Source: Reichenbachiella agariperforans
GTDB lineage: Bacteria > Bacteroidota > Bacteroidia > Cytophagales > Cyclobacteriaceae
Reading direction: 5' to 3'
Length of the DNA: 39,968 bases
Assembly: GCF_900142205.1 (NCBI RefSeq)
Contig: NZ_FRAA01000015.1
Coordinates: 1-39,968, forward strand
Under the pieces are notes generated by a model that worked only from the letters and a program-made list of their open reading frames with translations, was not told the origin of the DNA and did no database searches. This document shows, piece after piece, positions 26,151 through 39,968 of the stretch; the stretch's first letter is position 1, and the number at the start of each line of letters is the position of its first letter. Made by a program: the position numbers and the translations under genes.

Positions 26151-29100
26151 ATGAGGAGCATCGATTTCTTATTATTATATAAATTAGGGTTAATCAACCC
26201 AAGACACTCTATGACTGTACCTGAAATTAACCACCAAGTTGAAAATCAATATCCTTGGTTATTAAGGCGAACATCACTACACATTTCTTATGCCACTTTT
26301 GCAGTAGGTGCGTTAGTTATGTTAGGCTGGATATTTGATGTGGAGTTTTTGAAGCGGCCTATTTCTGGACTGGTGGCAATGAACCCTTTGACTGCTTTTT
26401 GTTTTATGCTATCAGGTATAGGTCACTCTCGTTTGTGCAAGAGGCAAGTGCCTGACCAGTCCAAGGATTTAGGAGTCATACTCATCGTAGGTCTCATGAT
26501 CTCGATAAGTGTAGCAAAGTTGATAAGTGGTTTTCTGAATTCTGATTTTCAAATAGATCAGGTGTTGTTTGCTCGAGTACTAACCACAGATATGGTAGGT
26601 AATGTTTCTAACAGTATGGCACCCAATACTGCTGTGGGATTTCTATTACTTGGGGTTTCTATTTATTTGTCAGGAATCGAGAAATATAAGAAAATAGCCA
26701 ATGCCTTGCTGCTCGGGGTGTTTATTGTAGGTTTTTTCTCAGTTCTGGGGTATTTGTATGGGGTAGGAGAGTTTTTTGGAGTATTGACAGAGCTGCCTAT
26801 GTCACTGCACACAGCAGTAGGCTTTATATTGGCAGCAGTGGGTATACTGTTGCTCAATTCTGAGAGCGGTTTCATGAAAGTCATTGTGAGCCGACATTCG
26901 GGTGGTAGAGTAGCCAAGATTATGATTCCTCTAGTCATAATTATTCCAGTCTTCTTTGGTTACTTACGATTAATGCTAGCACCGAGAACAACGATGAGTT
27001 CGGAGCTAGGTATTTCTATTCTGATTACTGGGATCATCATTGCTTTCTTGATCACTACTTGGTTCTTAGTACGCACACTCAATAGAAATGATGAGGTAAA
27101 AGAAAATCTGGAACAAAGCCAAGGACAATTTCAGCAAGCATTCGAATATTCAGCTATAGGAATGGCATTGGTCTCTACTTCGGGAAAATGGCTTAGTGCT
27201 AATCGACAGTTGTGTGAGATGCTAGGCTATAGTAAAGAAGAATTAGAACTATTGACCTTTCAGGATGTTACTCACCCAGACGATCTAGAAAGAGATATTA
27301 ATCAGTTACATGAATTAATAGATGGCGTTATTGATAGCTATCAAATGGAGAAGCGGTATTTCCGCAAGGACGGAAAGATTTTGTGGGTCTTGCTGAGTGT
27401 CTCTTTAGTCAAAAGTAGTAATGGGCAGCCACTACATTTTGTGTCTCAGATTGAGAACATAACGCAAAGGAAAGAAGTAGAAGACGCATTGAAAAACGCC
27501 TCAGATAGACTAACGCTCGCAACTCAGGCCGCTAAGGTGGGGATTTGGGAGTATGAAATAGCAGATAATGAGCTGATATGGGATAGTATTATGCACGATC
27601 TCTATGGTTTGAAGGAAGGACAATTTACTAATCAATATGAAGACTGGCGAAAAACACTGCACCCAGATGATGTAGTGCGCCTAGATGAGGGGGTAGCAAA
27701 TGCCATATCGGGGGCGGTAAAATTTGATATAGAATTCAGAGTAATATGGCCAGACCAATCTGTTCGTCACATTAGAGCGTTGGCTTTGGTAGAGCGAAAC
27801 GATAAAGGGCAGCCGCTACGGATGATAGGGACTAATTGGGATATTACCGTGGACAAAAATTACAAAGAAGCGCTTAGAGAAACCACCGAGTTGGCTGAGG
27901 TAGCTAAGCAGGAAGCGGTAGCTTCGGCGAAGGCCAAGGAGAATTTCCTTTCCAATATGAGCCATGAAATCAGAACCCCACTCAATGCCATACTGGGAGT
28001 TACTAATCTCTTATTATCCGAGGATATGAAAAGGGAACATATGGAGCATATAGAGCTATTGAAGTTTTCTGGAGAAAACCTCCTTGCACTGATCAATGAT
28101 ATCCTTGATTACAATAAGATTGATGCAGGGAAAATAGAGTTTGAGGAAGTTGATTTTGATCTTAAAGAACTATTGATCCGTATAAAACAAACTTTGTCCA
28201 CCAAAATAGAAGGGAAGGAATTAGAGCTAATATTGAGGTATGATGAGTCATTGCCATACGTCTTTGTAGGGGATTCGGTTAGAGTTGCTCAGGTGATCAA
28301 CAACCTGATGAGCAATGCCATCAAGTTTACCGAAGAGGGTTTTGTCAAGCTTGATGTGTCATTGGTGTCTCGTGATGATGAACAAGCAACAATTCATTTC
28401 GAAGTGCAGGATACGGGGATTGGTATCCAAAAGTCCAATCAGTCGATGATTTTTGAGAATTTTTCGCAAGCGAGTAGTGATACCACTAGAAAGTTTGGAG
28501 GGACAGGGTTAGGGCTGGCTATTACCCAAAAACTACTTGAGCTGATGGGAAGTGAGATTCGACTTGATAGTGATTTGGGCTTAGGATCTGTATTCTCTTT
28601 TGATGTGACTTTTCCTATCGGGAACAATGAGTCCATCTCATCCCAGAATCGACCTACCGAAATGATATTTGCCAATGTAGCAGATAAAAACATCAAAGTA
28701 TTAGTTGCGGAGGACAATCGAGCCAATCAAATTGTATTGCAGAAATTTTTGGATAAATGGGGCGTTAAAACTGATTTCGCTGAAAATGGAATGGTAGCCA
28801 TGGAAAAGGCTAAGTCCGAAGCATACAATTTGATTTTGATGGATTTGCAAATGCCAGAAATGGATGGCTATCAAGCAACAACAGCTATTAGAGATATGGA
28901 CACTGTCTATGCCAAGCAGGTGCCTATTGTTGCGCTTAGTGCTTCAGCGATGATGGAAGTGAGAAAAAAGGTGAAGGAACTAGGTATGACAGATTTTATA
29001 ACCAAACCCTTCAATCCAGAAGAACTGTACAAGAAGATTATTAAATATCATCATGTGGTGAATGTCAAAAACCTTATAAGCTTACCTGAGAATGCTATTT

Positions 29101-29423
29101 ATCAGCAATTGATGAATTATGCTGAGGGGGACGCGAGTTTTGTAAGCGAACTGGTAGGGCATTATTTGGACCACTATAAGGCATTTCGAATTCAGTTTTC
29201 AGAAGCCGTGATCCGTGACAATATGCCCCAACTAAAAGAAGCTTGCGAAAAAATCAGTAAGAGCAATGAGGCACTGTCCATTACTAGTATGGATGCCTTT
29301 TTTGATAAAATTGACACCTTGGAATCTACCAAAACGGAGGAGCGAAAGATGTTCGACGAGATCAAAGTTACTTGTCACGAAATCCTCGAAGATTTGAATG
29401 CCATAAAAGCGGCCTTGAATTGA
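26151..29423 (+). CDS. Membrane-bound hybrid histidine kinase
   Basis: 1090 residues. About eight transmembrane helices (~40-325) form a membrane sensor module; two PAS domains follow (~330-445 and ~455-575), then HisKA with SHEIRTPLNA (His605). The HATPase has N-box Asn722, DTGIGI and GGTGLGLAI, and the REC domain has phospho-acceptor Asp898 in LMDLQMPEMDG. A C-terminal HPt-like domain (~980-1085) has Cys1032 where the His should be (LKEACEKIS). It autophosphorylates and can pass phosphate to its own REC, but the last His step must occur elsewhere, probably on the next gene's product. The first ATG is used here; a second in-frame ATG at 26211 is equally possible. The kinase-to-end half is paralogous to the gene at 31844. 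Confidence 0.93.
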   Translation: MRSIDFLLLYKLGLINPRHSMTVPEINHQVENQYPWLLRRTSLHISYATFAVGALVMLGWIFDVEFLKRPISGLVAMNPLTAFCFMLSGIGHSRLCKRQVPDQSKDLGVILIVGLMISISVAKLISGFLNSDFQIDQVLFARVLTTDMVGNVSNSMAPNTAVGFLLLGVSIYLSGIEKYKKIANALLLGVFIVGFFSVLGYLYGVGEFFGVLTELPMSLHTAVGFILAAVGILLLNSESGFMKVIVSRHSGGRVAKIMIPLVIIIPVFFGYLRLMLAPRTTMSSELGISILITGIIIAFLITTWFLVRTLNRNDEVKENLEQSQGQFQQAFEYSAIGMALVSTSGKWLSANRQLCEMLGYSKEELELLTFQDVTHPDDLERDINQLHELIDGVIDSYQMEKRYFRKDGKILWVLLSVSLVKSSNGQPLHFVSQIENITQRKEVEDALKNASDRLTLATQAAKVGIWEYEIADNELIWDSIMHDLYGLKEGQFTNQYEDWRKTLHPDDVVRLDEGVANAISGAVKFDIEFRVIWPDQSVRHIRALALVERNDKGQPLRMIGTNWDITVDKNYKEALRETTELAEVAKQEAVASAKAKENFLSNMSHEIRTPLNAILGVTNLLLSEDMKREHMEHIELLKFSGENLLALINDILDYNKIDAGKIEFEEVDFDLKELLIRIKQTLSTKIEGKELELILRYDESLPYVFVGDSVRVAQVINNLMSNAIKFTEEGFVKLDVSLVSRDDEQATIHFEVQDTGIGIQKSNQSMIFENFSQASSDTTRKFGGTGLGLAITQKLLELMGSEIRLDSDLGLGSVFSFDVTFPIGNNESISSQNRPTEMIFANVADKNIKVLVAEDNRANQIVLQKFLDKWGVKTDFAENGMVAMEKAKSEAYNLILMDLQMPEMDGYQATTAIRDMDTVYAKQVPIVALSASAMMEVRKKVKELGMTDFITKPFNPEELYKKIIKYHHVVNVKNLISLPENAIYQQLMNYAEGDASFVSELVGHYLDHYKAFRIQFSEAVIRDNMPQLKEACEKISKSNEALSITSMDAFFDKIDTLESTKTEERKMFDEIKVTCHEILEDLNAIKAALN

Positions 29424-29570
29424 TGTGAATTTCACCTTAAATAAGAACGCATTCGACTACAAAGAGAGGGCTTTGACCGAGAAAATAAATATGAAGTGTA
29501 ATCATTTGATACCTTGTAGCCTTAGTGAATTTCAATAAGGTCAAGAGCAATATAGTTTAGAATAGATAAC

Positions 29571-30938
29571 ATGGAATATTCCCAATACAAATCGGAGCTT
29601 ATAGCTAATGAGACGCAATTGGTGGTCTTAGACCAAGATGGAAGTTTTATTGGCTCATGTGATACATTGGAAAAACTCTCTGGTTTTGAAGGACTCATAT
29701 TCAAGGAAAGCCAATTTTTAAATAGTAAAAGAGAGCAAATATTGGCTTTACAACAGGGAGAGATTATTAATTACTTCCGTGTTTCAGATTCCTTTTTTAA
29801 AGGAGCCCTCATTAGTGACTACCGCATAGAAAAGGTACTTGTTGAGGGACAACTCCAATTGCATTGGCTGATATATGATCGCACACAGATGTACGAAAAG
29901 ATGACGGAACGAGAATTAGACGAAAAAGGAGTGATGAAGCAGAACAGTGACTTGCGTCAACTGGTGCGAGTACTCGAGAAAGAGAAGGATACAAATCAGA
30001 CTGTTAATAGCAGGTTACATCACGAGATTAAAATGCCGATTTCGGGGCTAAAATTTTTGTCTAAATCAAGTAGTGAGCATTTAGATCCCGAGACTAAAAA
30101 GAGGCACCAGTTGAGCATGGGTGTCATTACAGGGTATCTGGAGTATGCCGTCAACCAACTGGTAGCTACTGAGTTCAAAGAAACAAATATACCTTTCAAG
30201 ATAGACCAAATTATAGCGGCGGTAGAGGACACTTTTCTTGGTGAGTCAGATGCTCATTTGGTTTTTGAGAAAGAGTTCGAATCATCTATCGTGATTGGAA
30301 ACAAGCATAAGTTTTATATCGGTATTGTTCGTTTACTCAGTATTATCAACGATGGGCAACCTGATGGTCGAGTACGAGTGACTTTTGCTTATGACGAGCC
30401 TGCCAGATCAATTAGGCTTACTTTTAAGTCTAATCACCTGCCTGATGCACTACAGCGGATAGTACGCAAATACATAGGAATAAATGGTGCTTTTGATCTT
30501 AAGATCGAAGGTGGTGTACTGGTAATGATATGCCCTATCGAAGAGATAAAAATGCTCGAACCTATACCTACGAAAAAAAAGTCGAATGCTGAGGTGAAGC
30601 AAATCTCCAGAGCACAATTTCCATATTTGTATCAGATAACCAATCAGGATGATGAAATGGTGCGGGACATCATCGAAGGAGTGTTGGATGTGGTGCCTTT
30701 TGAATTGGAAAAAATGATGAAGCAATACCAAGCCAGAGACTATGATGCTCTAGCACGTACTTCGCACAAGGTCAAACCTAATTTTGAAAACCTAGAACAA
30801 AAGCAGTTTATCTCCAAAATATTTGAGATAGAAGCAGCAGCGATCAACAAGGATGTTGATTTTCTTCAAGCACATTTGGAGCCATTTGTCACCGAAGCGA
30901 GTGCCAAAATAGAAGAATTGAAAAGAATCTATACCTAG
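29571..30938 (+). CDS. Kinase-like phosphotransferase with HPt domain
   Basis: 455 residues. An N-terminal PAS-like region (~15-110), then a coiled coil. A HisKA-like segment has LHHEIKMPISGL (His151 in an H-E-x-K-x-P box). The ATPase-like part (~195-330) lacks the N, G1 and G2 boxes (RLLSIINDGQPDG stands where the N-box Asn should be), so ATP binding is unlikely. The C terminus (~352-455) is an HPt domain with SHKVKPNFENL, His399. An inactive kinase fold serving as phosphotransferase recalls ChpT and Spo0B; here an HPt is added. It lies between the hybrid kinase, whose own HPt-like domain lacks His, and the LytTR regulator, so it is the natural phosphate carrier of the cluster (inference). 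Confidence 0.8.
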   Translation: MEYSQYKSELIANETQLVVLDQDGSFIGSCDTLEKLSGFEGLIFKESQFLNSKREQILALQQGEIINYFRVSDSFFKGALISDYRIEKVLVEGQLQLHWLIYDRTQMYEKMTERELDEKGVMKQNSDLRQLVRVLEKEKDTNQTVNSRLHHEIKMPISGLKFLSKSSSEHLDPETKKRHQLSMGVITGYLEYAVNQLVATEFKETNIPFKIDQIIAAVEDTFLGESDAHLVFEKEFESSIVIGNKHKFYIGIVRLLSIINDGQPDGRVRVTFAYDEPARSIRLTFKSNHLPDALQRIVRKYIGINGAFDLKIEGGVLVMICPIEEIKMLEPIPTKKKSNAEVKQISRAQFPYLYQITNQDDEMVRDIIEGVLDVVPFELEKMMKQYQARDYDALARTSHKVKPNFENLEQKQFISKIFEIEAAAINKDVDFLQAHLEPFVTEASAKIEELKRIYT

Positions 30939-30986
30939 ATAGGGTATATCCGAGATGTGTTATTTTGAATTACTTTGAAAAGTCAA

Positions 30987-31015
30987 TTGATTTAACTGCG
31001 GTTTTAGTAACTTTT
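30987..31015 (+). promoter_or_regulatory. Possible promoter of the LytTR regulator
   Basis: TTG (30987-30989), 18 bases, then TAACTTTT (31008-31015, one mismatch to TAnnTTTG) could start a transcript about 60 bases before the regulator ATG. The match is imperfect. Confidence 0.3.
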
Positions 31016-31080
31016 AGAAATATGATCCATCTTGATTTTAAAGACTAAAAGAAGAAATTTAACTAACCAAAACAACAACC

Positions 31081-31782
31081 ATGCTTAAGAAGTTAACATG
31101 TGTCGCTATTGATGATGAATTTATTGCATTAAAAATCATTACATCACTCATAGATCAAACAGGTTTTTTGACCTTACTGGGGTCATATCAGAGTGCCGTA
31201 GAGGGGACCAATGCCATCATAGAATTGGAGCCAGATATTGTTTTTCTAGATGTGCAAATGCCAGAGATTAGTGGTTTGGACATTATCAAGTCATTGAACA
31301 AAAAGCCAGAAATTATTCTCATCACATCGCAGGTAAAGTATGCAGTGGAAGCATTCGAATTTAACGTTACAGATTATTTGGTGAAGCCGATTGAAAGTTA
31401 TGCGCGCTTTATGAATGCCGTAACCAAGGCGAAGGACAACATAGCGCTGAAGGAGAAAAATGTAACGGGTAGTGATGCAGTTTTTATGAAAATAGATTTT
31501 CTACTTACCAAGGTGCAATTTGAGTCTATTTTGTATGTAGAAGGGTATGGAGATTATATCAAAGTACATACTACAGATAAGACCCACGTCGTGTATTACA
31601 AGTTGAGTAGTATAGAGGATAAGTTACCAAAGGATCTGTTTATGAGAGTGCATCGGTCTTACCTTGTTCAGATTAATAAAATTGATAATATCGATCAAAA
31701 TAGTCTGGTTATAGGAGATAATGTAGTACCCGTAAGTGCTAAATACAAACCAGAACTACTGAATAAAATCGAAATGCTCTAA
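31081..31782 (+). CDS. LytTR-type response regulator
   Basis: The 233-residue protein has an N-terminal receiver domain with acidic pocket DD (11-12), phospho-acceptor Asp57 (FLDVQMPE), Thr82 and Lys102 (LVKP). A LytTR DNA-binding domain (~135-233) shows ILYVEGYGDYIKVHT and LFMRVHRSYLVQINKI, the family's core. LytTR proteins bind pairs of ~9-bp direct repeats spaced by about 12-13 bp. In Bacteroidota they are usually paired with membrane LytS-type kinases; here they sit in a cluster with two HisKA hybrid kinases and an HPt protein. A candidate site lies at 34735-34764 before the giant surface protein gene. The HK gene follows 61 bp downstream. Confidence 0.93.
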   Translation: MLKKLTCVAIDDEFIALKIITSLIDQTGFLTLLGSYQSAVEGTNAIIELEPDIVFLDVQMPEISGLDIIKSLNKKPEIILITSQVKYAVEAFEFNVTDYLVKPIESYARFMNAVTKAKDNIALKEKNVTGSDAVFMKIDFLLTKVQFESILYVEGYGDYIKVHTTDKTHVVYYKLSSIEDKLPKDLFMRVHRSYLVQINKIDNIDQNSLVIGDNVVPVSAKYKPELLNKIEML

Positions 31783-31843
31783 AACGGGAATATGGGAGGT
31801 TTTAGATAGATCGCACCGTTTATTAAAGTCAGAAAATGAATTC

Positions 31844-34663
31844 ATGATATCGCCAAAAAAACCAACTAATGAGAAACAAAGGCTGGATGAGTTATACTCG
31901 TATCAGATTCTCGACACGGCCATAGAGCAGAGTTTTGACGATATTACGAAGATTGCAGCCCAGATATGTGACTCGCCGATTTCATTGGTGAGTTTGATCG
32001 ATCAAGATCGGCAGTGGTTCAAGTCGCATCACGGGTTAGATGTGTCAGAGACACCGAGAGATTTGGCTTACTGTGCACATGCGATTCATTCACCTCAGGA
32101 TTTGCTCGAAGTGTCAGACGCTTTCAAAGATGAGCGATTTCATGACAACCCATTGGCGACAGGAGCGCCTCATGTAAGGTTTTATGCGGGTGCGCCACTG
32201 GTATCATCCAGTGGCTATGCACTAGGGACTCTTTGTGTAATAGATCATCAGCCTAAATCTCTAACTGAGGGACAAAAAGAAGCACTTTGGGCTTTGTCTC
32301 GACAGGTGAGTGCGCTTTTGGAATTAAAGAAATCTAATAGAATACTCGAAGAAACTAGAGTCGCTCAGTCTCAAACGGAGCAGACTTTTAGAGATCGACT
32401 GGAGAGAATTGGAGACATGGTATATGAGCTTGATCCGAAGGGTAAGTTTATTTATGTCAACCCTGTACTGATACGTATTTCTGGTTTCCCAGAGGATGAG
32501 CTACTCAATATGCATTTTTCAGAATTGGTTTACGAATCTGATATTGAGCGAGTGACGGAGTATTACATTCGAATACTTAAGAACAAAGAAGTTTCTTCCT
32601 ATTTGGAGTTTAAAATGAAAGGTGTCAATGGACCTGTTTGGGTAGGACAAACTGTAGAAATAGAGTTTGATGATTGGCAAGGTGTACACATATATGGTGT
32701 AGCTAGAAATATCCAAGAACTGATGGAAGCCAGAGACCGGATGGAAAAAAGTGAGGAAAAGTATAGATGGCTCTCAGAGTACTCCGCAGACATGATTTGT
32801 CTGCATGAGCCCGATGGTAGATATAAATATTTATCGTCATCAGTCAAAGACTTGTTAGGTTATGAACAAGATGAATTGATAGGGGTAAGTCTCTACGATT
32901 TGATTCATCCAGATTTGATTAAGAGTCAGGTAGATGTTAAATCATTGAATGAGTATGGTTTTTCGGGCATAGAATCGAGGTTGCGTAAGAAGGACGGTAG
33001 TTATGTTTGGGTGGAATTTTATGCTAAGCCTATTTATAATGAGAAACAAGAAGTCGTCTCGATACAGTCCTCCACCCGAGATATCTCTAAACGGAGGAAG
33101 TTTGATGAAGCCATCCAACGAGCCATGCGGCTTGCAGAAAATGCCAAGCAAGAAGCGATAGCATCAGCTAAAGCGAAGGAGAATTTTCTCTCGACAATGA
33201 GTCATGAAATTAGAACACCACTGAATGCTATTCTGGGTGTAACAAATCTTTTGCTCATGGAAGAATTGGAGCAAAAACATCTTGACCATCTCAATTTATT
33301 GAAATTTTCTGGTGAAAACCTCCTTTCGTTGATTAACGATATTTTAGATTATAACAAGATAGAGTCTGGCAAGATTGATTTTGAAAAGGTAGATTTTAAC
33401 CTGAGAGAAGTGTTGATCAATTTGAAGCAGTCGGTCATGCCAGAGGTGGACAAAAAAGGCCTAGAGTTAGTCTTGAACTATGATGAGCAGTTGCCAAATA
33501 TGTTTGTAGGAGACTCAGTTCGAATCACTCAAATTATCAATAATCTACTCAGCAATGCCGTCAAGTTTACGGAAGAAGGGTTTATCAAGTTGGATATATC
33601 CTTGATAGAGAGGAAAGGGAGTGTGGCGCAAATCCGATTTGAAATACATGATACAGGTATCGGTATAGCGTCAGCCAATCAGTCCGTGATTTTTGAAAAT
33701 TTTGCACAAGCCAGTGATGACACTACCAGAAAATTCGGTGGAACAGGTTTAGGGCTTGCTATTACCAAAAAGCTCCTGTTGCTTATGGGGAGTAAGATCA
33801 GTTTAGACAGTGAGCTAGGGTATGGTTCTATATTCTATTTCGATATTGAACTGCCGATAGGCAATGAGTTAGAAGCTCTCCCTGATACTAAAAGTGGGTC
33901 GTCTGTTTTTGAAAGCGTAGCGGATCGAGACATTCATATACTTGTCGCTGAAGACAACCGAGCCAATCAAATCGTACTCGAAAAATTCTTGCAAAAATGG
34001 GGGATGAAGGTGGAATTTGTAGAAAACGGACGATTGGCATTGGAGAGATCAAAGATCGAGTGCTATGATCTAATCTTGATGGATCTTCAAATGCCGGAAA
34101 TGGATGGGTATCAAGCGACACAAGAGATCAGAAAGCTGTCTACTACCTACGGACAAAACCTGCCTATCATCGCACTGACGGCATCTGCACTGCTGGATGT
34201 ACGAAAAAAAGTGAAGGAGTTAGGGATGACAGATTATATAACTAAGCCTTTTAATCCAGAAGAATTATATAAGAAAATTCTGAAAAATGCTGGTAAAGTC
34301 CTTAAGCGACTAGTAAGCCCTATTAATGATCCAATTAGTCTTCGTCTACACGAGTTGTCAGAAGGAGATCCTGATTTTAAAAAGGAACTGACTCAGCATT
34401 ACCTAGATCAGTATGAGGGTTTTATGAGCAGTTTCTCAAAGGCAATGAAGGAACTTGACGAAAAAATGTTGAAGGAGGCTTGTTATGGAATCAAAACGAG
34501 CAATGAAGTTTTGGAATATACAGCTTTGGATCAAGTGATCGAAAGTGCACAGCAAGCCATGCTCGGTCAGGGCATATCTAAAGAGCAAAGTATCGAAGAA
34601 GCGACTAAAGCATACGAATCGATTACAGCTACACTTAGGGATATACTATCCCATGAACTTTGA
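31844..34663 (+). CDS. Soluble hybrid histidine kinase (GAF-PAS-PAS)
   Basis: 939 residues, no membrane segment. GAF domain (~25-165, with LIDQDRQWFKSHHGL and GTLCVID), two PAS domains (~180-300 and ~305-425), then HisKA with SHEIRTPLNA (His454). The HATPase has the N-box in NNLLSNAVKF, then DTGIGI and GGTGLGLAI. The REC domain has Asp747 in LMDLQMPEMDG, and an HPt-like end (~825-935) carries Cys880 in place of His (LKEACYGIK). From the linker before the H-box onward it is closely similar to the kinase at 26151, while the sensor half is unrelated. It should respond to an internal signal and feed the same relay. Last gene of the signalling cluster. Confidence 0.93.
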   Translation: MISPKKPTNEKQRLDELYSYQILDTAIEQSFDDITKIAAQICDSPISLVSLIDQDRQWFKSHHGLDVSETPRDLAYCAHAIHSPQDLLEVSDAFKDERFHDNPLATGAPHVRFYAGAPLVSSSGYALGTLCVIDHQPKSLTEGQKEALWALSRQVSALLELKKSNRILEETRVAQSQTEQTFRDRLERIGDMVYELDPKGKFIYVNPVLIRISGFPEDELLNMHFSELVYESDIERVTEYYIRILKNKEVSSYLEFKMKGVNGPVWVGQTVEIEFDDWQGVHIYGVARNIQELMEARDRMEKSEEKYRWLSEYSADMICLHEPDGRYKYLSSSVKDLLGYEQDELIGVSLYDLIHPDLIKSQVDVKSLNEYGFSGIESRLRKKDGSYVWVEFYAKPIYNEKQEVVSIQSSTRDISKRRKFDEAIQRAMRLAENAKQEAIASAKAKENFLSTMSHEIRTPLNAILGVTNLLLMEELEQKHLDHLNLLKFSGENLLSLINDILDYNKIESGKIDFEKVDFNLREVLINLKQSVMPEVDKKGLELVLNYDEQLPNMFVGDSVRITQIINNLLSNAVKFTEEGFIKLDISLIERKGSVAQIRFEIHDTGIGIASANQSVIFENFAQASDDTTRKFGGTGLGLAITKKLLLLMGSKISLDSELGYGSIFYFDIELPIGNELEALPDTKSGSSVFESVADRDIHILVAEDNRANQIVLEKFLQKWGMKVEFVENGRLALERSKIECYDLILMDLQMPEMDGYQATQEIRKLSTTYGQNLPIIALTASALLDVRKKVKELGMTDYITKPFNPEELYKKILKNAGKVLKRLVSPINDPISLRLHELSEGDPDFKKELTQHYLDQYEGFMSSFSKAMKELDEKMLKEACYGIKTSNEVLEYTALDQVIESAQQAMLGQGISKEQSIEEATKAYESITATLRDILSHEL

Positions 34664-34799: not shown

Positions 34800-34821
34800 A
34801 TTGTTCATAAATACGAAGACT

Positions 34822-37800
34822 ATGAAAACTCATTTCTCTACCAAAGAAAATCATTCAAAAATTAATAAGAGGGCATTTTTTGCGAAGGGGTCATTTTGCA
34901 TGTTCCTATTGTATGCCGGACTCAGACTCAATGTGATGGCTCAAGCCACTATTGATGATGGAAGCGCAGGCGCTAACGCTCTGATGAGCCGAATAGAAGG
35001 CACAGGTGTTACTTTGGCTAACGGAACTTTCCCTAATCCTGGTGATGCGGGAGCCCAATATGGTACCTTCTCTAATGGTATTAGCGGAGCTAACCTGAGT
35101 GTAGATTCGGGGATAATTCTAGCTACTGGAAGTGTCACGACAGCTCTGTCGTCCAATGATGCAGCGAACTCGTCTGAGAATACGGGTAATACCTATAGTG
35201 ATTCGGATTTGGTAGCGATAAATGCGAATGGCATATATGACGCAGCGATTTTTCAGTTTGAAATTACTACTGGGAGCGATGTGGACGCTATTATTATTTC
35301 GTATCAGTTTGGGTCAGAAGAATATCCGGATTATGTATGTTCTCAATACAATGATGTCTTTGGTTTTTTTGTCTCAGGACCAGGAATTACAGGTACCCAG
35401 AATATTGCGCTTGTACCAGAGTCTGGCAATGTCGTAGCAGTCAATTCTGTAAATGGGGGAGTTTGTGGGAGTGCCCAGGATGGCACTGCGGCTGATTTGA
35501 CTAAATCCAATTATTATATAGATAATAATGAAGGTGTACCAGGACCATTGTATATAGAGTTTAATGGAGTGACCACTTTACTCAATGGTCGTATAGATAA
35601 CCTGACGCCAAACACGACTTATACTTTCAAAATTGCAATTGCGGATGTTGGTGACGGCACTTATGATTCGGGGGTTATTATCAATCAAGTCATTGGTTAT
35701 AAATCAAACTCTGATAGTGATGGGCTCGACGATACAGCAGATTTGGATGATGACAATGATGGAATAGATGACATAGTCGAGGCAGGAGGTAATGAACCTA
35801 ATGGAGATGAGGATGGTGATGGATTAGAAAATTGGAGAGACGTATTGGACAACAATGGTTTAGGGGATGGATCTACAACTGTCTATACTGATAGTGATAA
35901 CAATGGATTTCCAGATGTGTATGATACTGACGGTGATGGGATTCCTAACCACCAAGATTTAGACAGTGATGATGATGGCTGTTATGATGTCGTCGAAGCA
36001 GGACATGCAGATTCGGATAATGACGGTATTTTGGGCAGTTCGCCTGTAGCATCAGATGGTGACGGTAGGGTAGATGGTCAGGGAGGTTATACTGGTACCA
36101 ATAGTTACGTAACCACTGCTGGTGTAGCTGGTAACATTACTGGAGAGCCTGTAGCAGAGAGTACAATGAAAAATGGAGATGCTACATTTTCAGTATCAGC
36201 TACGGGCGATGACTTGATCTATCAATGGCAAGAATTTAATGGCTCTGTATGGAACGATATAACCAACGGCGGATCTGCTCCTGGTTACTCTGGTGCGACT
36301 ACTAGTAGTCTGTCTATTACCAACTTGCCACTGACGTACAATGGATATGATTATCGAGTAGTAATTACTAGTACGTCGTATGCTTGTACAGACCTGACGT
36401 CTGATGAAGTGAATTTGGAAGTATTGGCGCCTCCTTCAGATGCACCAGTGATTACAGATGATTTTTGTGTAGTCGCAGCAGGTGCCGTTACTGAAGTGAG
36501 CGGATCTACTACTGAAAGCACAACTAACCTCGTCATAAGAGTTTATGTAGCAAGTACCGAAACAGGTACTAAAAGTGAAGTCACTCCTAGTCAAGTAGTT
36601 TTCTCTTCAGGGTCTTGGACGGCCGAAGGACTATCTATCAATGCAGGTCAGTGGGTATTTGCCACGGCAGAAAATGTAGACTTAAGTGAGCCAGAAGGAG
36701 ATTTTTCGGCAGGCGTGATGGTACGTACAAAAACACCTGACCCTACTAACTCATTAGTAATCACATCTGACCCTGTTGCAGGAGATGCTACACTAGAAGG
36801 TGAAGTTCTTGTCTCTACTACATCCGCATATGTCATTCAACTGTATATAGATGGAGTGAAAATTCCAGGAGCGGTGGCTTCTGTTCCGCAGGGTGCATTG
36901 GCAGCTATTGGCTCTTGGATCATAGAGGATTTAGATGTGCCTTCCGCAGTATTGTATGCTAATGGGATAGCTACTGTCACCATGGATAATCCTGACATAG
37001 CATTTTGTGAAAGTGATCCCTCTGCAGGGGTGCTTATCGCTTGTAATCCTAGCAATACTATCGCGTTAGATATGAGTCAAAGCCCTAGTGGTTGTGATTT
37101 AACTGATGGTTCTATTCAGATTAGTGGTTTGGGAGCTTCTCAAGCCTATACGATTAAGTACAAAAAAGACAATGTGGATGTGTCTACTAATGTGAATTCA
37201 AATGCGAGTGGAGAAGCGATCATCTCTGGCCTCAATGATGGATCATATACTGATATTTATGCAGATTTGCCTTCCTGCCCATCCAATGTGCTGGCAGGCC
37301 CCGTGGTTCTTACTGAGCCAACACCCGTTACTATTTCTCATCAGCTATCTTTCAGCCCTACCACATGCGGAGGAACTGACGGATACATCAGATTGGGAGG
37401 TTTGTCAGGGTCTACTTCTTATACCGTTGACTATAAGAAAGACGGGACACCTGTTAGCCGTACTATTGCTGCTTCTGCCGGCCAATTGACTATCAACAAT
37501 TTATCAGCGGGTAGTTATACAGATATTTCTGTAACCTCATCTAGCTGTACTTCTAATGTGTTAGCTGGTCCTTATAGTCTTAGTGACCCTTTGGCTCCTA
37601 CCATTATATATGATACGGAGACAAATCCTTCTTCATGCTCTTCTACGGATGGATATATTCGCTTGAGTGGACTGATTTTCAACAATGACTATGATTACCA
37701 ATATACCAAAGAAGGGATCTTGGTCAGTTCTGCTACCCCTTTGACGGCTGATGTGACAGGAGCTATTCAGATCAATAATTTGGGCGCAGGTACATACATA

Positions 37801-39968
37801 AATGTTAGCGTTATCGAAACGGGGAGTAATTGTCAGTCGAATACCATACCAAGTATAACGTTGAACCCACCAGATATAGAGTTGGGTACAGTAGCATCAC
37901 CTACGACATGTAGTGGTGTAGATGGTTCCATTGAAATAATTAATTTGGCTGAAAACACTACGTATGACTTGGATTATCAAATAGGAGGCTCTCCAGTTGC
38001 TACGTCAACTTTTACAGCGAGTAGTACAGGTGAGCATACTATTTCGAGCTTATCAGAGGGAGTATATACAGATATTACTGTGACCAACAATTCTTGTGTA
38101 TCCAATGTTTTGTCCACGACCTTGACTGATCCTGCCAACCCAGTTATAGCTGAAGGAACTTTAGTAAATCCTAGTACCTGTGGAGGGGCAAATGGTAGTA
38201 TTCAGTTGACAGGTTTGAATGTCTCAACTACCTACACGGTGGACTATACTTTGGGTAGTTTGGTCTCCCAAACATTGGCTTCTGATGGGAGTGGGAACTT
38301 AACAATTTCAAATCTTGCAGCAGGTGCTTATACTGACATTAGCGTCACGTTAAATAACTGTTCTTCTAATCAGCTGGCTTCTGTTACTTTGAGTGATCCT
38401 GCTAGTCCTACGATCACATTAGGGCAAAACCCAGAGGTGTGTGCGGGAGAGACATCTGGCGACTTGGTATACAGCGCCACGACTAATTCTCCTGATACTT
38501 ATAGTATTGATTTTGATGGTGTAGCTGAAGCTTTTGGTTTTGTGGACGTATCAGGAGCACCACTTTCAAGTAGTCCTATTACGATTGACATACCAACAGG
38601 TGCTGATCCTGATGTTTACAATGCAACCATTACTGTCACAAATTCATCAACATCTTGCTCAAGTATTGGCGAGGGTTTTACAATTTCAGTGATTGGGTTT
38701 CCTTCGGTACCTACTGTTCAAAACATAGTGACTAATGATCCAACACCTATCATTTCTGGCAGTGCAGATGCAGGCGTGTCTCTTGAAGTAGAGGTGGCAG
38801 GTGCTACATACAACTTGTCAGCAGACGGAAGTGGCAATTGGAGTATTGATACAGAGTCAGTGACTCCCGATGCTGGTACTTTTAATCCAGACGTGAATGG
38901 AGTCAATGAAGTGTTGGTTACTGCAGGAGTCTCTGGGTGTGAAGTGTCAGATGTTACTTCTAACGAACTGACTATAGATACTACACCTCCTACGGTAGAT
39001 ATTCAAAATGAACCATCAGTGATTTCTAGTTCTTCAGCTTTTACGGTCACAATTAGTTTTGACGAGGATGTTTTCAATTTTGTGCTGACTGATGTAGTCA
39101 TTAGCAATGGGTTTGGGTCCAATTTTCAAGTCGTTGATGGGAGTACTTATACCCTTGATATTACACCAAATATGTCTGATGATGTAACGATTGATGTACC
39201 AGTTTCAGTAGCCAATGATGAAGCAACTAATGATAATACTGCAGCTATTCAGGCTGTGGTGCCTTTAGCACCAACGTCACCTACAGTTTCGAGCCAAATA
39301 ACCAATGATCTGACTCCTGTTATCACAGGTACGACTGGTACTGGTGTAGAACTTGACGCTGACGAATCTATGACTGTTGAAATCAATGGTGCGACTTACG
39401 CAGTGATCCCAGACGCAAGTGGCAACTGGAGTGTAGACACAGAGACGGCAACTCCATCGAGTGGCACTTTGGGTACATTTTCTAATGGAAACAGTTATGA
39501 AGTGATAGCTATTGTAGAAGATGGAGGAGGAAATCAAGCAACGGACATAAGTTCCAATGAGATAATAATAGATACAGTAGCTCCCACTGTACCAACCGTA
39601 GTTAGTCAAGTTACTAGTGACACGACACCTGTTATCAGTGGAACGACAGGTACAGGCGCAGCTTTGTCTGGAGATGAAAATATGAGAGTGACTGTTAATG
39701 GCGCAACGTATAATGTAACTCCCGATGCAAGTGGTAACTGGAGTATAGATACAGAAACGGCTCCTGCTATATCTGGTACTTTGGGAACATTCACAGATGG
39801 CAACACTTACCAAGTTGTAGCGACTGTGACTGATGTAGCAGGTAACACAGCAACAGATGCGAGTACCGACGAGTTAGTGATAGACACGACGGATCCAACC
39901 GTACCAACTGTAGTAAGTCAAACGACCTCAGACACAACACCAGTGATCACAGGAACGACAGGCACAGG
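34822..39968 (+). CDS. Giant secreted repeat protein (adhesin-like), 5' part
   Basis: Open from the ATG at 34822 to the window end (1715 codons seen, no stop). Signal peptide (~1-40, cut before Gln41), then a choice-of-anchor L domain (~42-292, with FGSEEYPDYVC and YNDVFGFFVSGPG). An acidic thrombospondin type 3-like Ca-binding stretch follows (~297-423, e.g. DSDGLDDTADLDDDNDG). Next come Ig-like domains (~449-745), five 90/91-residue repeats with paired Cys (first Cys at 758, 849, 939, 1030, 1120) and an Ig-like stretch (~1207-1486). From 1487 on there are 103-residue bacterial Ig-like repeats. The C terminus is outside; in this phylum a T9SS signal or gliding-type C-terminal domain would be expected there. 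Likely a cell-surface adhesin or matrix protein, possibly under the control of the upstream relay. Confidence 0.9.
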   Translation, partial: MKTHFSTKENHSKINKRAFFAKGSFCMFLLYAGLRLNVMAQATIDDGSAGANALMSRIEGTGVTLANGTFPNPGDAGAQYGTFSNGISGANLSVDSGIILATGSVTTALSSNDAANSSENTGNTYSDSDLVAINANGIYDAAIFQFEITTGSDVDAIIISYQFGSEEYPDYVCSQYNDVFGFFVSGPGITGTQNIALVPESGNVVAVNSVNGGVCGSAQDGTAADLTKSNYYIDNNEGVPGPLYIEFNGVTTLLNGRIDNLTPNTTYTFKIAIADVGDGTYDSGVIINQVIGYKSNSDSDGLDDTADLDDDNDGIDDIVEAGGNEPNGDEDGDGLENWRDVLDNNGLGDGSTTVYTDSDNNGFPDVYDTDGDGIPNHQDLDSDDDGCYDVVEAGHADSDNDGILGSSPVASDGDGRVDGQGGYTGTNSYVTTAGVAGNITGEPVAESTMKNGDATFSVSATGDDLIYQWQEFNGSVWNDITNGGSAPGYSGATTSSLSITNLPLTYNGYDYRVVITSTSYACTDLTSDEVNLEVLAPPSDAPVITDDFCVVAAGAVTEVSGSTTESTTNLVIRVYVASTETGTKSEVTPSQVVFSSGSWTAEGLSINAGQWVFATAENVDLSEPEGDFSAGVMVRTKTPDPTNSLVITSDPVAGDATLEGEVLVSTTSAYVIQLYIDGVKIPGAVASVPQGALAAIGSWIIEDLDVPSAVLYANGIATVTMDNPDIAFCESDPSAGVLIACNPSNTIALDMSQSPSGCDLTDGSIQISGLGASQAYTIKYKKDNVDVSTNVNSNASGEAIISGLNDGSYTDIYADLPSCPSNVLAGPVVLTEPTPVTISHQLSFSPTTCGGTDGYIRLGGLSGSTSYTVDYKKDGTPVSRTIAASAGQLTINNLSAGSYTDISVTSSSCTSNVLAGPYSLSDPLAPTIIYDTETNPSSCSSTDGYIRLSGLIFNNDYDYQYTKEGILVSSATPLTADVTGAIQINNLGAGTYINVSVIETGSNCQSNTIPSITLNPPDIELGTVASPTTCSGVDGSIEIINLAENTTYDLDYQIGGSPVATSTFTASSTGEHTISSLSEGVYTDITVTNNSCVSNVLSTTLTDPANPVIAEGTLVNPSTCGGANGSIQLTGLNVSTTYTVDYTLGSLVSQTLASDGSGNLTISNLAAGAYTDISVTLNNCSSNQLASVTLSDPASPTITLGQNPEVCAGETSGDLVYSATTNSPDTYSIDFDGVAEAFGFVDVSGAPLSSSPITIDIPTGADPDVYNATITVTNSSTSCSSIGEGFTISVIGFPSVPTVQNIVTNDPTPIISGSADAGVSLEVEVAGATYNLSADGSGNWSIDTESVTPDAGTFNPDVNGVNEVLVTAGVSGCEVSDVTSNELTIDTTPPTVDIQNEPSVISSSSAFTVTISFDEDVFNFVLTDVVISNGFGSNFQVVDGSTYTLDITPNMSDDVTIDVPVSVANDEATNDNTAAIQAVVPLAPTSPTVSSQITNDLTPVITGTTGTGVELDADESMTVEINGATYAVIPDASGNWSVDTETATPSSGTLGTFSNGNSYEVIAIVEDGGGNQATDISSNEIIIDTVAPTVPTVVSQVTSDTTPVISGTTGTGAALSGDENMRVTVNGATYNVTPDASGNWSIDTETAPAISGTLGTFTDGNTYQVVATVTDVAGNTATDASTDELVIDTTDPTVPTVVSQTTSDTTPVITGTTGT
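37084..38430 (+). repeat. Five tandem ~271-bp repeats in the surface protein gene
   Basis: Five in-frame units of 90 or 91 codons (first-Cys codons at 37093, 37366, 37636, 37909, 38179). Each has CxxTDGSI-like start, a Tyr-rich strand, GxYTDIxV and a second Cys in CxSN, ending in a SDP-type turn. They vaguely recall SprB repeats but I cannot assign them to that family. Confidence 0.85.
39280..39968 (+). repeat. Tandem 309-bp Ig-like repeats, continuing past the window
   Basis: Units of exactly 309 bp (103 codons): the same segment (VSQ..SDTTPVI.GTTGTG) recurs at 39295, 39604 and 39913. Each contains DASGNWSIDTET and ends IIDT.APT. A degenerate earlier copy starts near 38704. The array is cut by the window end. 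Confidence 0.9.

What the first reader, a model, noticed from the sequence alone, without database searches (positions are those of the whole stretch)
26151..34663. Self-contained multistep phosphorelay with a separated HPt step
Four co-directional genes encode two hybrid kinases (membrane-bound and GAF/PAS soluble), an ATPase-dead kinase-like protein with an HPt domain, and a LytTR regulator. Both hybrid kinases have an intact H-box, N-box and REC, but their terminal HPt-like domains lack the His. The only HPt His in the cluster is on the middle protein. The simplest reading is His-Asp (on the kinase), His (on the shared carrier), Asp (on LytTR), with two different sensors feeding one carrier. 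LytTR regulators usually pair with LytS-type kinases, so this wiring is unusual.
Basis: partly seen in the sequence, partly recalled or inferred. Interest (0 to 1): 0.78.

Follow-up and report, generated by a model that had tools for sequence, protein, structure and literature searches.

The report
Kinase remnant as probable phosphorelay carrier
A marine bacterium carries a gene cluster in which a former sensor kinase seems to have lost its enzyme parts and probably now only passes phosphate from neighbouring sensors to one gene regulator, and its relatives suggest that it came from a module driven by a Ras-like switch protein.

Summary
Four co-directional genes in a Reichenbachiella genome encode hybrid kinase HK1 (26151-29423), a kinase-like protein "P2" with an HPt domain (29571-30938), a LytTR regulator (31081-31782) and hybrid kinase HK2 (31844-34663). 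HK1 and HK2 keep all kinase and receiver residues, but their HPt-like tails have Glu/Tyr instead of His. The cluster's only HPt His is H399 of P2.

Comparison supports HK-His > HK-Asp > P2-His399 > LytTR-Asp57. In 10 of 10 P2 loci found (Reichenbachiella, Marinoscillum) P2 and LytTR are neighbours (7 directly, 3 with a small receiver gene between) beside a hybrid kinase without HPt His. H399 is invariant (10 of 10); P2's other candidate His is not. Sensors are exchangeable.

New: P2's N-terminal domain matches, besides P2, only partners of Rup-like (Ras-type) GTPases among the sequences searched, and its LytTR is sister to LytTR regulators of such loci. P2 looks like a Rup-module hybrid kinase that lost receiver and ATPase; no Rup GTPase was found in these genomes. 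In logic it resembles RcsC-RcsD-RcsB. Phosphotransfer is inferred, not measured. New variant of a known kind.

The parts
26151..29423 (+). HK1: membrane hybrid histidine kinase, 1090 aa
   Evidence: ORF; Pfam; candidate membrane segments residues 49-306 (nt 26295-27068)
27933..28130 (+). HK1 HisKA (H605 at 27963-27965)
   Evidence: Pfam; residue
28269..28607 (+). HK1 HATPase, N-, G1-, G2-boxes intact
28698..29039 (+). HK1 receiver (D898 at 28842-28844)
29040..29420 (+). HK1 tail: degenerate HPt, E1033 (29247-29249) at the His position
   Evidence: hhalign; model; weak fold matches; least conserved part of HK1 (39% mean identity in 4 genomes)
29571..30938 (+). P2: kinase-like protein without ATP-binding motifs, with HPt, 455 aa
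   Evidence: no meaningful Pfam match; found in 10 loci
29571..29906 (+). P2 N-terminal Rup-partner-like domain (Gln16 at 29616-29618)
   Evidence: profile matches, besides P2, only Rup-locus proteins among ORFs searched; Gln in 24 of 24 aligned
29907..30170 (+). P2 remnant of the dimerisation/His domain (H151 at 30021-30023, not conserved)
30171..30575 (+). P2 remnant of the ATPase domain; N-, G1-, G2-boxes absent
   Evidence: alignment with intact hybrids; no HATPase match
30603..30935 (+). P2 HPt domain (H399 at 30765-30767)
   Evidence: RcsD HPt region in NCBIfam, E 0.00022, far below that model's cut-off; only solved-structure hit 1SR2, E 0.71
31081..31782 (+). LytTR response regulator, 233 aa (REC 31105-31395, D57 at 31249-31251; LytTR 31507-31770)
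   Evidence: tree
31844..34663 (+). HK2: soluble GAF-PAS hybrid histidine kinase, 939 aa
   Evidence: no membrane segment over threshold
33173..33370 (+). HK2 HisKA (H454 at 33203-33205)
33938..34279 (+). HK2 receiver (D747 at 34082-34084)
34280..34660 (+). HK2 tail: degenerate HPt, Y881 (34484-34486) at the His position

Best explanation
This is a four-step phosphorelay with two alternative sensors and one shared, separate phosphotransfer protein. HK1 (membrane) and HK2 (cytoplasmic GAF/PAS) autophosphorylate on H605/H454 and pass phosphate to their own receivers (D898/D747). Because their own HPt tails have lost the His, phosphate leaves to H399 of P2 and then goes to D57 of the LytTR regulator, which acts on DNA. 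P2 is a former hybrid kinase of a Rup-type (Ras-like GTPase) module: it kept the Rup-partner N-terminal domain, a kinase-shaped scaffold and an HPt, and lost its ATP-binding motifs, receiver and (in some lineages) the kinase His; the GTPase was lost and ordinary hybrid kinases took over the kinase role. Shown: gene content, residues present and absent, conservation, relationship of the LytTR regulators, specificity of the N-terminal domain within the sequences searched, no Rup GTPase found. Inferred: each transfer step, the direction of flow, that HK1 and HK2 both feed P2, the evolutionary order of losses, and the target genes.
For: (1) H399 and HKxKPNF in 10 of 10 P2 proteins; the alternative H151 is His in 4 of 5 Reichenbachiella and 0 of 5 Marinoscillum-type proteins. 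(2) 13 of 13 neighbouring hybrid kinases keep H-box His, N-, G-boxes and REC Asp; 0 of 13 have His at the aligned HPt position. (3) P2 and LytTR neighbours in 10 of 10 loci (7 directly, 3 with one receiver gene between), each with an adjacent hybrid kinase, while HK1 or HK2 is missing in some. (4) Conservation: in 5 Reichenbachiella, P2's HPt 79% mean identity against 51, 57 and 66% for its other parts; HK1 tail 39% (4 genomes) and HK2 tail 50% (3 genomes), each the lowest in its protein. (5) LytTR tree: the 10 P2-linked regulators form a clade (100/98) sister to 10 Rup-locus LytTR regulators (99/97), apart from 21 other rows. (6) P2's N-terminal profile matches, besides P2, only Rup-locus proteins among the ORFs searched. 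(7) Rup GTPase query: 0 of 8 Reichenbachiella, 0 of 6 Marinoscillum-type, 5 of 5 genomes chosen as positive controls; a second Rup-locus protein of 268 aa: 0 of 14 against 3 of 3. (8) P2's model resembles PAS/LOV histidine kinases in the PDB (low-confidence model).
Against: No transfer, expression or interaction data. Intergenic gaps of 147, 142 and 61 bases do not prove one transcript. The genome has a stand-alone HPt protein that HK1 and HK2 could use. P2's HPt scores better against stand-alone HPts and hybrids without the Rup N-terminus (56-39 bits) than against Rup hybrids (39-16 bits); HPt trees group P2 with most Rup hybrids at 82/81, with three Aquimarina HPts among them and one Rup hybrid outside, or at 89/94 after six rows were dropped, and do not reject grouping with stand-alone HPts (p-AU 0.115). 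The Marinoscillum-type kinase tails are not recognisable as HPt by profile (1.3-6.9%), only through the Reichenbachiella tails (90%), and one of them (G116) has a His four columns before the aligned position. Two of the ten P2 proteins (G224, G187) were not found by the N-terminal profile, and G205 only at E 3.6e-6. The other LytTR rows in the tree come from Reichenbachiella (20) and one other locus, so a closer non-Rup relative in another genus is not excluded. Three congeners without P2 also lack Rup, so loss of Rup is not tied to P2.
Confidence: 0.74

Rival explanations
1. HK1 and HK2 hand phosphate to a stand-alone HPt encoded elsewhere (G000:C8 near 1080390-1080701) and P2 serves as a sink or phosphatase route for the LytTR regulator.
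For: The stand-alone HPt is a clear Pfam Hpt match (31.6 bits) in the same genome. Reverse flow through an HPt is known from other relays (recalled).
Against: Small HPt frames of 126-150 aa also occur in the three Reichenbachiella genomes without P2 (G003, G005, G007), so they are not tied to HK1/HK2, whereas kinases without HPt His sit beside P2 in 10 of 10 loci.
Confidence: 0.12
2. P2 works like Spo0B or ChpT (recalled): the acceptor is H151 in the His-box remnant, not H399.
For: H151 lies in a well-formed H-box (HHEIKMP) in the window protein; ChpT is a dimeric phosphotransferase resembling histidine kinases (abstract, PMC3433190).
Against: H151 is Asn in G006 and not His in 5 of 5 Marinoscillum-type P2 proteins, where the domain is eroding; H399 is present in 10 of 10.
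Confidence: 0.04
3. The LytTR regulator is phosphorylated by one of the 13 LytS-type kinases elsewhere and the cluster's hybrid kinases and P2 act on something else.
For: 13 PF06580 matches in the genome; LytS-LytTR is the usual pairing.
Against: No PF06580 match is on the window contig, while 12 of 20 LytTR matches have one within about 1.2 kb; P2 and LytTR neighbours in 10 of 10 loci; LytTR relatives at Rup-type loci are next to hybrid kinases with an HPt.
Confidence: 0.05
4. P2 is a chimera: Rup-type N-terminus and kinase remnant joined to an HPt from another protein, rather than a deletion product of one hybrid kinase. The relay logic is the same, so this rival is compatible with the relay.
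For: HPt profile scores favour stand-alone HPts and non-Rup hybrids; p-AU 0.115 does not reject P2 with stand-alone HPts.
Against: The best HPt trees place P2 on the Rup side (82/81, 89/94); several Rup HPts are long-branched, which can lower scores; the same domain order N-terminus, His domain, ATPase, (REC), HPt in both.
Confidence: 0.3

Closest known systems
Rcs phosphorelay (RcsC hybrid kinase, RcsD, RcsB) of enterobacteria
   Same: Hybrid kinase; separate protein without kinase activity carrying the HPt; then a response regulator (passages of PMC5651002). P2's HPt gives the RcsD model as sole NCBIfam hit (E 0.00022, far under its cut-off) and 1SR2, titled yojN (RcsD, synonym recalled), as sole solved-structure hit (E 0.71).
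   Different: P2 has no predicted membrane segment, the output is LytTR rather than a FixJ/NarL-type regulator, there are two sensors, and P2's N-terminus is of the Rup-partner kind. Similarity to RcsD is confined to the HPt, so convergence is likelier than common descent.
Lux quorum sensing relay (LuxN, LuxQ, CqsS to LuxU to LuxO)
   Same: Several hybrid kinases converge on one HPt protein and one regulator (abstract of PMC5394107).
   Different: LuxU is a small HPt (recalled), here the HPt is part of a 455-aa kinase remnant.
ChpT and PhyT phosphotransferases
   Same: ChpT resembles a histidine kinase (abstract of PMC3433190); PhyT transfers phosphate from SdrG to PhyR via a conserved His (abstract of PMC5898713).
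   Different: There the acceptor His is on the kinase-like domain (recalled); in P2 it is on a C-terminal HPt, and the kinase-like His is not conserved.
Group 1 Rup GTPase modules
   Same: P2's N-terminal domain with an invariant Gln, as described for Rup output proteins (sections 16 and 18 of PMC4316618; here 24 of 24); LytTR partner is sister to LytTR regulators of such loci.
   Different: No Rup GTPase found, and the output kinase is no longer a kinase by sequence.
LytS/LytTR two-component systems
   Same: LytTR-type response regulator.
   Different: No LytS-type (PF06580) kinase in the cluster; input probably by hybrid kinases through an HPt.

Membership tests
Rcs-type phosphorelay (works like) | Hybrid kinase with intact HK and REC but no functional HPt | tested here: met
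   13 of 13 kinases in P2 loci
Rcs-type phosphorelay (works like) | Separate protein with inactive kinase module and C-terminal HPt | tested here: met
   P2: no HATPase match, boxes absent in alignment, HPt H399
[quoted passage not shown]
   No hydrophobic segment over the 1.6 threshold in P2 (maximum 1.29)
Rcs-type phosphorelay (membership) | RcsB-type regulator with FixJ/NarL DNA-binding domain | tested here: not met
   LytTR domain instead
Rcs-type phosphorelay (membership) | Homology to RcsD outside the HPt | tested here: inconclusive
   NCBIfam RcsD match covers only residues 367-411
Group 1 Rup module | Output protein with N-terminal region bearing an invariant Gln | tested here: met
   Gln16; 24 of 24 aligned proteins; profile specificity
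Group 1 Rup module | Rup GTPase gene | tested here: not met
   0 of 8 Reichenbachiella, 0 of 6 Marinoscillum-type, 5 of 5 positive controls; Ras family search agrees
Group 1 Rup module | Two further conserved partner proteins (a coiled-coil protein; a membrane protein with a peptidoglycan-binding domain) | tested here: inconclusive
   Only the 268-aa protein of one Rup locus was searched: 0 of 14 genomes against 3 of 3 controls; which of the published partners it corresponds to was not tested, and the peptidoglycan-binding protein was not searched for
LytS/LytTR system | LytS-type kinase (PF06580) beside the LytTR regulator | tested here: not met
   None of 13 PF06580 matches lies on the window contig
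Phosphorelay (His-Asp-His-Asp) | Phosphate transfer along the four sites | not testable with these tools
   Needs biochemistry

The most novel reading that the evidence does not exclude
P2 is an allosterically gated phosphotransfer hub: its Rup-partner N-terminal domain still senses something (another G protein, a ligand or a membrane partner) and opens or closes the HPt step, so the relay integrates HK1, HK2 and a third input. The retained Gln where no Rup GTPase is found would then mean that the Gln domain is a sensor in its own right and not simply a catalytic Gln lent to the GTPase, as had been speculated.
Probability: 0.3. Interest if true: 0.7.

Novelty: new variant of a known kind. Interest (0 to 1): 0.52.

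Why it matters
It offers a stepwise series that could show how a phosphotransferase of the RcsD sort arises from a kinase: intact hybrids at Rup-type loci, P2 with a kinase His but no ATPase boxes, P2 without the kinase His, and shorter P2 proteins (373-400 aa) with the His domain largely gone. It also makes a testable link between the Rup GTPases, none of which had been characterised experimentally by 2014 (PMC4316618), and LytTR gene regulation, including four loci where the Rup-partner domain is fused straight to a LytTR DNA-binding domain.

Tried and rejected
Chance or artefact was rejected: the cluster recurs in other genomes. H151 as the acceptor was judged unlikely for lack of conservation. 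A Rup GTPase elsewhere in the genome was sought and not found (controls). The AlphaFold model of P2 with three sequences was poor outside the HPt (mean pLDDT 58), so its whole-protein fold matches are supporting evidence only. HPt trees did not settle where P2's HPt came from (six of 35 rows, three Rup and three Aquimarina, were dropped). Co-evolution analysis of REC-HPt interfaces was not run: ten P2 loci are too few. Promoter and LytTR-site searches in the gaps were not run; the gap sequences were only printed. The genome-contig scan returned 5 loci, of which 2 held full-length P2 and 3 (Aquimarina) only a small HPt. Literature: 10 searches. Among the titles and abstract openings listed I saw no paper on this cluster, on Reichenbachiella relays, or on Rup GTPases with LytTR; some searches listed only part of their hits (12 of 21, 15 of 137, 13 of 14), and the library lacks most subscription journals. 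The one Rup paper does not contain 'LytTR' or 'HPt' in its main text; its supplements were not read. For PMC4558063 only passages were seen.
Full report
WHAT IS THERE. The window is a whole contig (C12, 39,968 bases) of a 5.03-Mb draft genome. The genus is Reichenbachiella: a congener, G004, has a contig of the same length as the named R. faecimaris DSM 26133 contig returned (1,101,025 bases). HK1 has PAS, HisKA, HATPase and REC; HK2 has GAF, PAS, HisKA, HATPase and REC; the 233-aa protein has REC and LytTR. P2, 455 aa, matches nothing meaningful in Pfam and only the HPt region of the RcsD model in NCBIfam, far under that model's cut-off.

ACTIVE-SITE INVENTORY. HK1: H605, N722, D754, G783, D898; HK2: H454, N571, D603, G632, D747; regulator: D57; P2: H399 in its HPt and H151 in an H-box-like motif. 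The kinase tails are degenerate HPt domains. A profile of eight Reichenbachiella tails matches the HPt profile of nine related hybrid kinases with 94% probability, a stand-alone HPt with 82%, P2's HPt with 53%, and three control domains with at most 3.3%. A model of the tail (mean pLDDT 84) has three chains of one HPt entry as its first PDB matches, at weak E-values of 0.17 to 0.21. At the His position the eight tails have E, E, D, G (HK1) and Y, N, D, E (HK2), never His.

RELATIVES. In 390 genomes of the family I found ten P2 proteins without a receiver domain: in five of eight Reichenbachiella (own genome included) and in five genomes of a second genus (G014, G116, G205, G224, G187); a sixth genome of that genus, G160, gave only a weak match that I did not examine. 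The second genus holds Marinoscillum: G014 has the contig length of M. furvescens DSM 4134. A draw of 390 genomes of the order gave three matches at E 1e-15 or better: the own genome, G014, and one 659-aa frame matching residues 1-227 only. Gene order: G000, G002 and G004 have HK1-P2-LytTR-HK2; G001 lacks HK2; G006 lacks HK1 and its HK2 is split into two frames; all five Marinoscillum-type loci have one 1312-1332-aa kinase of the HK2 kind, then P2, then LytTR, with a single receiver-domain protein between P2 and LytTR in three of five. So the four-gene order is kept in 3 of 10, and P2 with LytTR plus at least one neighbouring hybrid kinase in 10 of 10 (P2 directly next to LytTR in 7).

CONSERVATION SPEAKS FOR A MOVED HPt STEP. 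H399 and the pattern HKxKPNF are present in 10 of 10 P2; H151 is His in 4 of 5 Reichenbachiella (Asn in G006) and in none of the 5 Marinoscillum-type proteins, where that domain is eroding. All 13 neighbouring kinases keep their kinase and receiver residues and none has His at the aligned HPt position (for HK2 of G006 only the C-terminal piece was used). In Reichenbachiella the HPt is the most conserved part of P2 (79% mean pairwise identity in five genomes; 51, 57 and 66% for the rest), while the tail is the least conserved part of HK1 (39% against 59-79%, four genomes) and HK2 (50% against 72-88%, three genomes). Against this: the Marinoscillum-type tails are related to the Reichenbachiella tails (90%) but match HPt profiles at only 1.3-6.9%, so their aligned position is uncertain, and the tail of G116 has a His four columns earlier.

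WHERE IT CAME FROM. The best matches to P2 outside these two genera include intact hybrid kinases of about 640 aa (N-terminal domain, HisKA, HATPase, REC, HPt). In 11 of the loci fetched for them (chosen among top hits, not at random) the gene directly upstream is a Ras-like GTPase (Pfam run on one; the others by alignment); further upstream lie proteins of about 270, 120 and 210 aa, the last with a peptidoglycan-binding domain in the one tested. A LytTR regulator of 42-48% identity to the window's follows directly in 9 of 11 and after one gene in one (L068); in L063 only a distant one (26%) follows after one gene. The layout fits the Group 1 Rup GTPase neighbourhoods described by Wuichet and Sogaard-Andersen (PMC4316618, sections 16 and 18 read), who noted an invariant Gln in the N-terminal region of the output proteins and no catalytic Gln in the GTPase. 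Both hold here: Gln in 24 of 24 N-terminal domains, P2 included, and Glu at the Ras Gln61 position (numbering recalled) in 12 of 12 GTPases. P2's N-terminal profile, built from seven P2, matches besides P2 only such Rup-locus proteins among the ORFs searched; it missed the P2 of G224 and G187. The P2-linked LytTR regulators form a clade (100/98) that is sister to ten Rup-locus LytTR regulators (99/97), apart from 20 LytTR proteins of Reichenbachiella and one other; some long branches are flagged in that tree, and relatives from other genera were not added.

THE GTPase WAS NOT FOUND. A Rup GTPase query finds nothing in 8 Reichenbachiella and 6 Marinoscillum-type genomes, and finds it in 5 of 5 genomes picked as positive controls. 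A search with the Pfam Ras family gives only matches of E 6e-8 or weaker, in frames of about 300-1000 aa (other GTPases, my reading), in those 14, against E 1.3e-30 or better in 3 of 3 controls. The 268-aa protein of one Rup locus is missing in 14 of 14 and present in 3 of 3. This also holds for the Reichenbachiella genomes without P2.

WHAT IS UNRESOLVED. P2's HPt scores higher against stand-alone HPts and hybrids without the Rup N-terminus (56-39 bits) than against Rup hybrids (39-16 bits). Trees of the HPt put P2 with ten of eleven Rup hybrids and three Aquimarina HPts at 82/81, and with the remaining Rup hybrids at 89/94 after three Rup and three Aquimarina rows were dropped; P2 with stand-alone HPts is not rejected (p-AU 0.115). 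So P2 may be a chimera in its HPt. This does not change the proposed relay.

HOW IT MOST LIKELY WORKS. Shown by sequence: kinases that look competent, with receivers and no HPt His; one conserved HPt on a protein without ATP-binding motifs; a LytTR regulator with its Asp. Inferred: flow HK-His, HK-Asp, P2-His399, LytTR-Asp57, either sensor being able to drive it. The retained kinase-shaped scaffold probably serves for dimerisation and docking. The retained Gln domain without a GTPase is the real puzzle.

COMPARISON. In logic it is an Rcs-like relay (passages of PMC5651002) with converging sensors as in Lux (abstract of PMC5394107). It is not an Rcs member: no membrane segment in P2, LytTR output, RcsD similarity limited to the HPt. 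It is not a full Rup module: no GTPase found. LytTR matches in this genome lie near a LytS-type kinase in 12 of 20 cases (counted by position), so the wiring is a minority one here.

VERDICT. Observation confirmed, interpretation supported with the correction that the unit is P2+LytTR with exchangeable sensors, and extended by a probable origin in a Rup-type GTPase module. New variant of a known kind. On re-checking, the neighbour count (7 direct, 3 with a gene between) and the G116 tail were added; the confidence was lowered by 0.01 for that.

Noticed in passing
L036:1492-2259, L044:1501-2274, L048:1192-1968, L052:1168-1938: In four loci a Rup-like GTPase gene is followed by a protein that joins the Rup-partner N-terminal domain directly to a LytTR DNA-binding domain, without kinase or receiver: a possible direct GTPase-to-promoter link.
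   Followed up: partly
L022:10368-10739, L054:8607-8972, L055:10160-10519: Three of five Marinoscillum-type loci have a single receiver-domain protein between P2 and LytTR, resembling the LytTR regulator's receiver (33-37% identity); possible phosphate sink or extra step.
   Followed up: no
window 34801-39968: A large protein with an Ig-like Big_12 match runs off the contig; a large protein matching it lies beside the cluster in the four congeners with P2 too, at 83, 80, 32 and 33% identity. Possible target of the regulator.
   Followed up: no
L069:2829-3530 and 4442-4810 (G000:C8): A stand-alone HPt protein lies one gene away from the LytTR regulator that scored best among this genome's paralogues (38% identity), hinting at a second LytTR-HPt pairing in the same genome.
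   Followed up: no
L021:4760-7580: HK2 of G006 is split into two overlapping frames (594 and 348 aa); natural frameshift or sequencing error not decided.
   Followed up: no
window 29040-29420 and 34280-34660: The dead HPt tails keep a Cys one residue before the lost His position and an S-N-E motif after it in 8 of 8 Reichenbachiella kinases, so the tail may have a non-transfer role.
   Followed up: no
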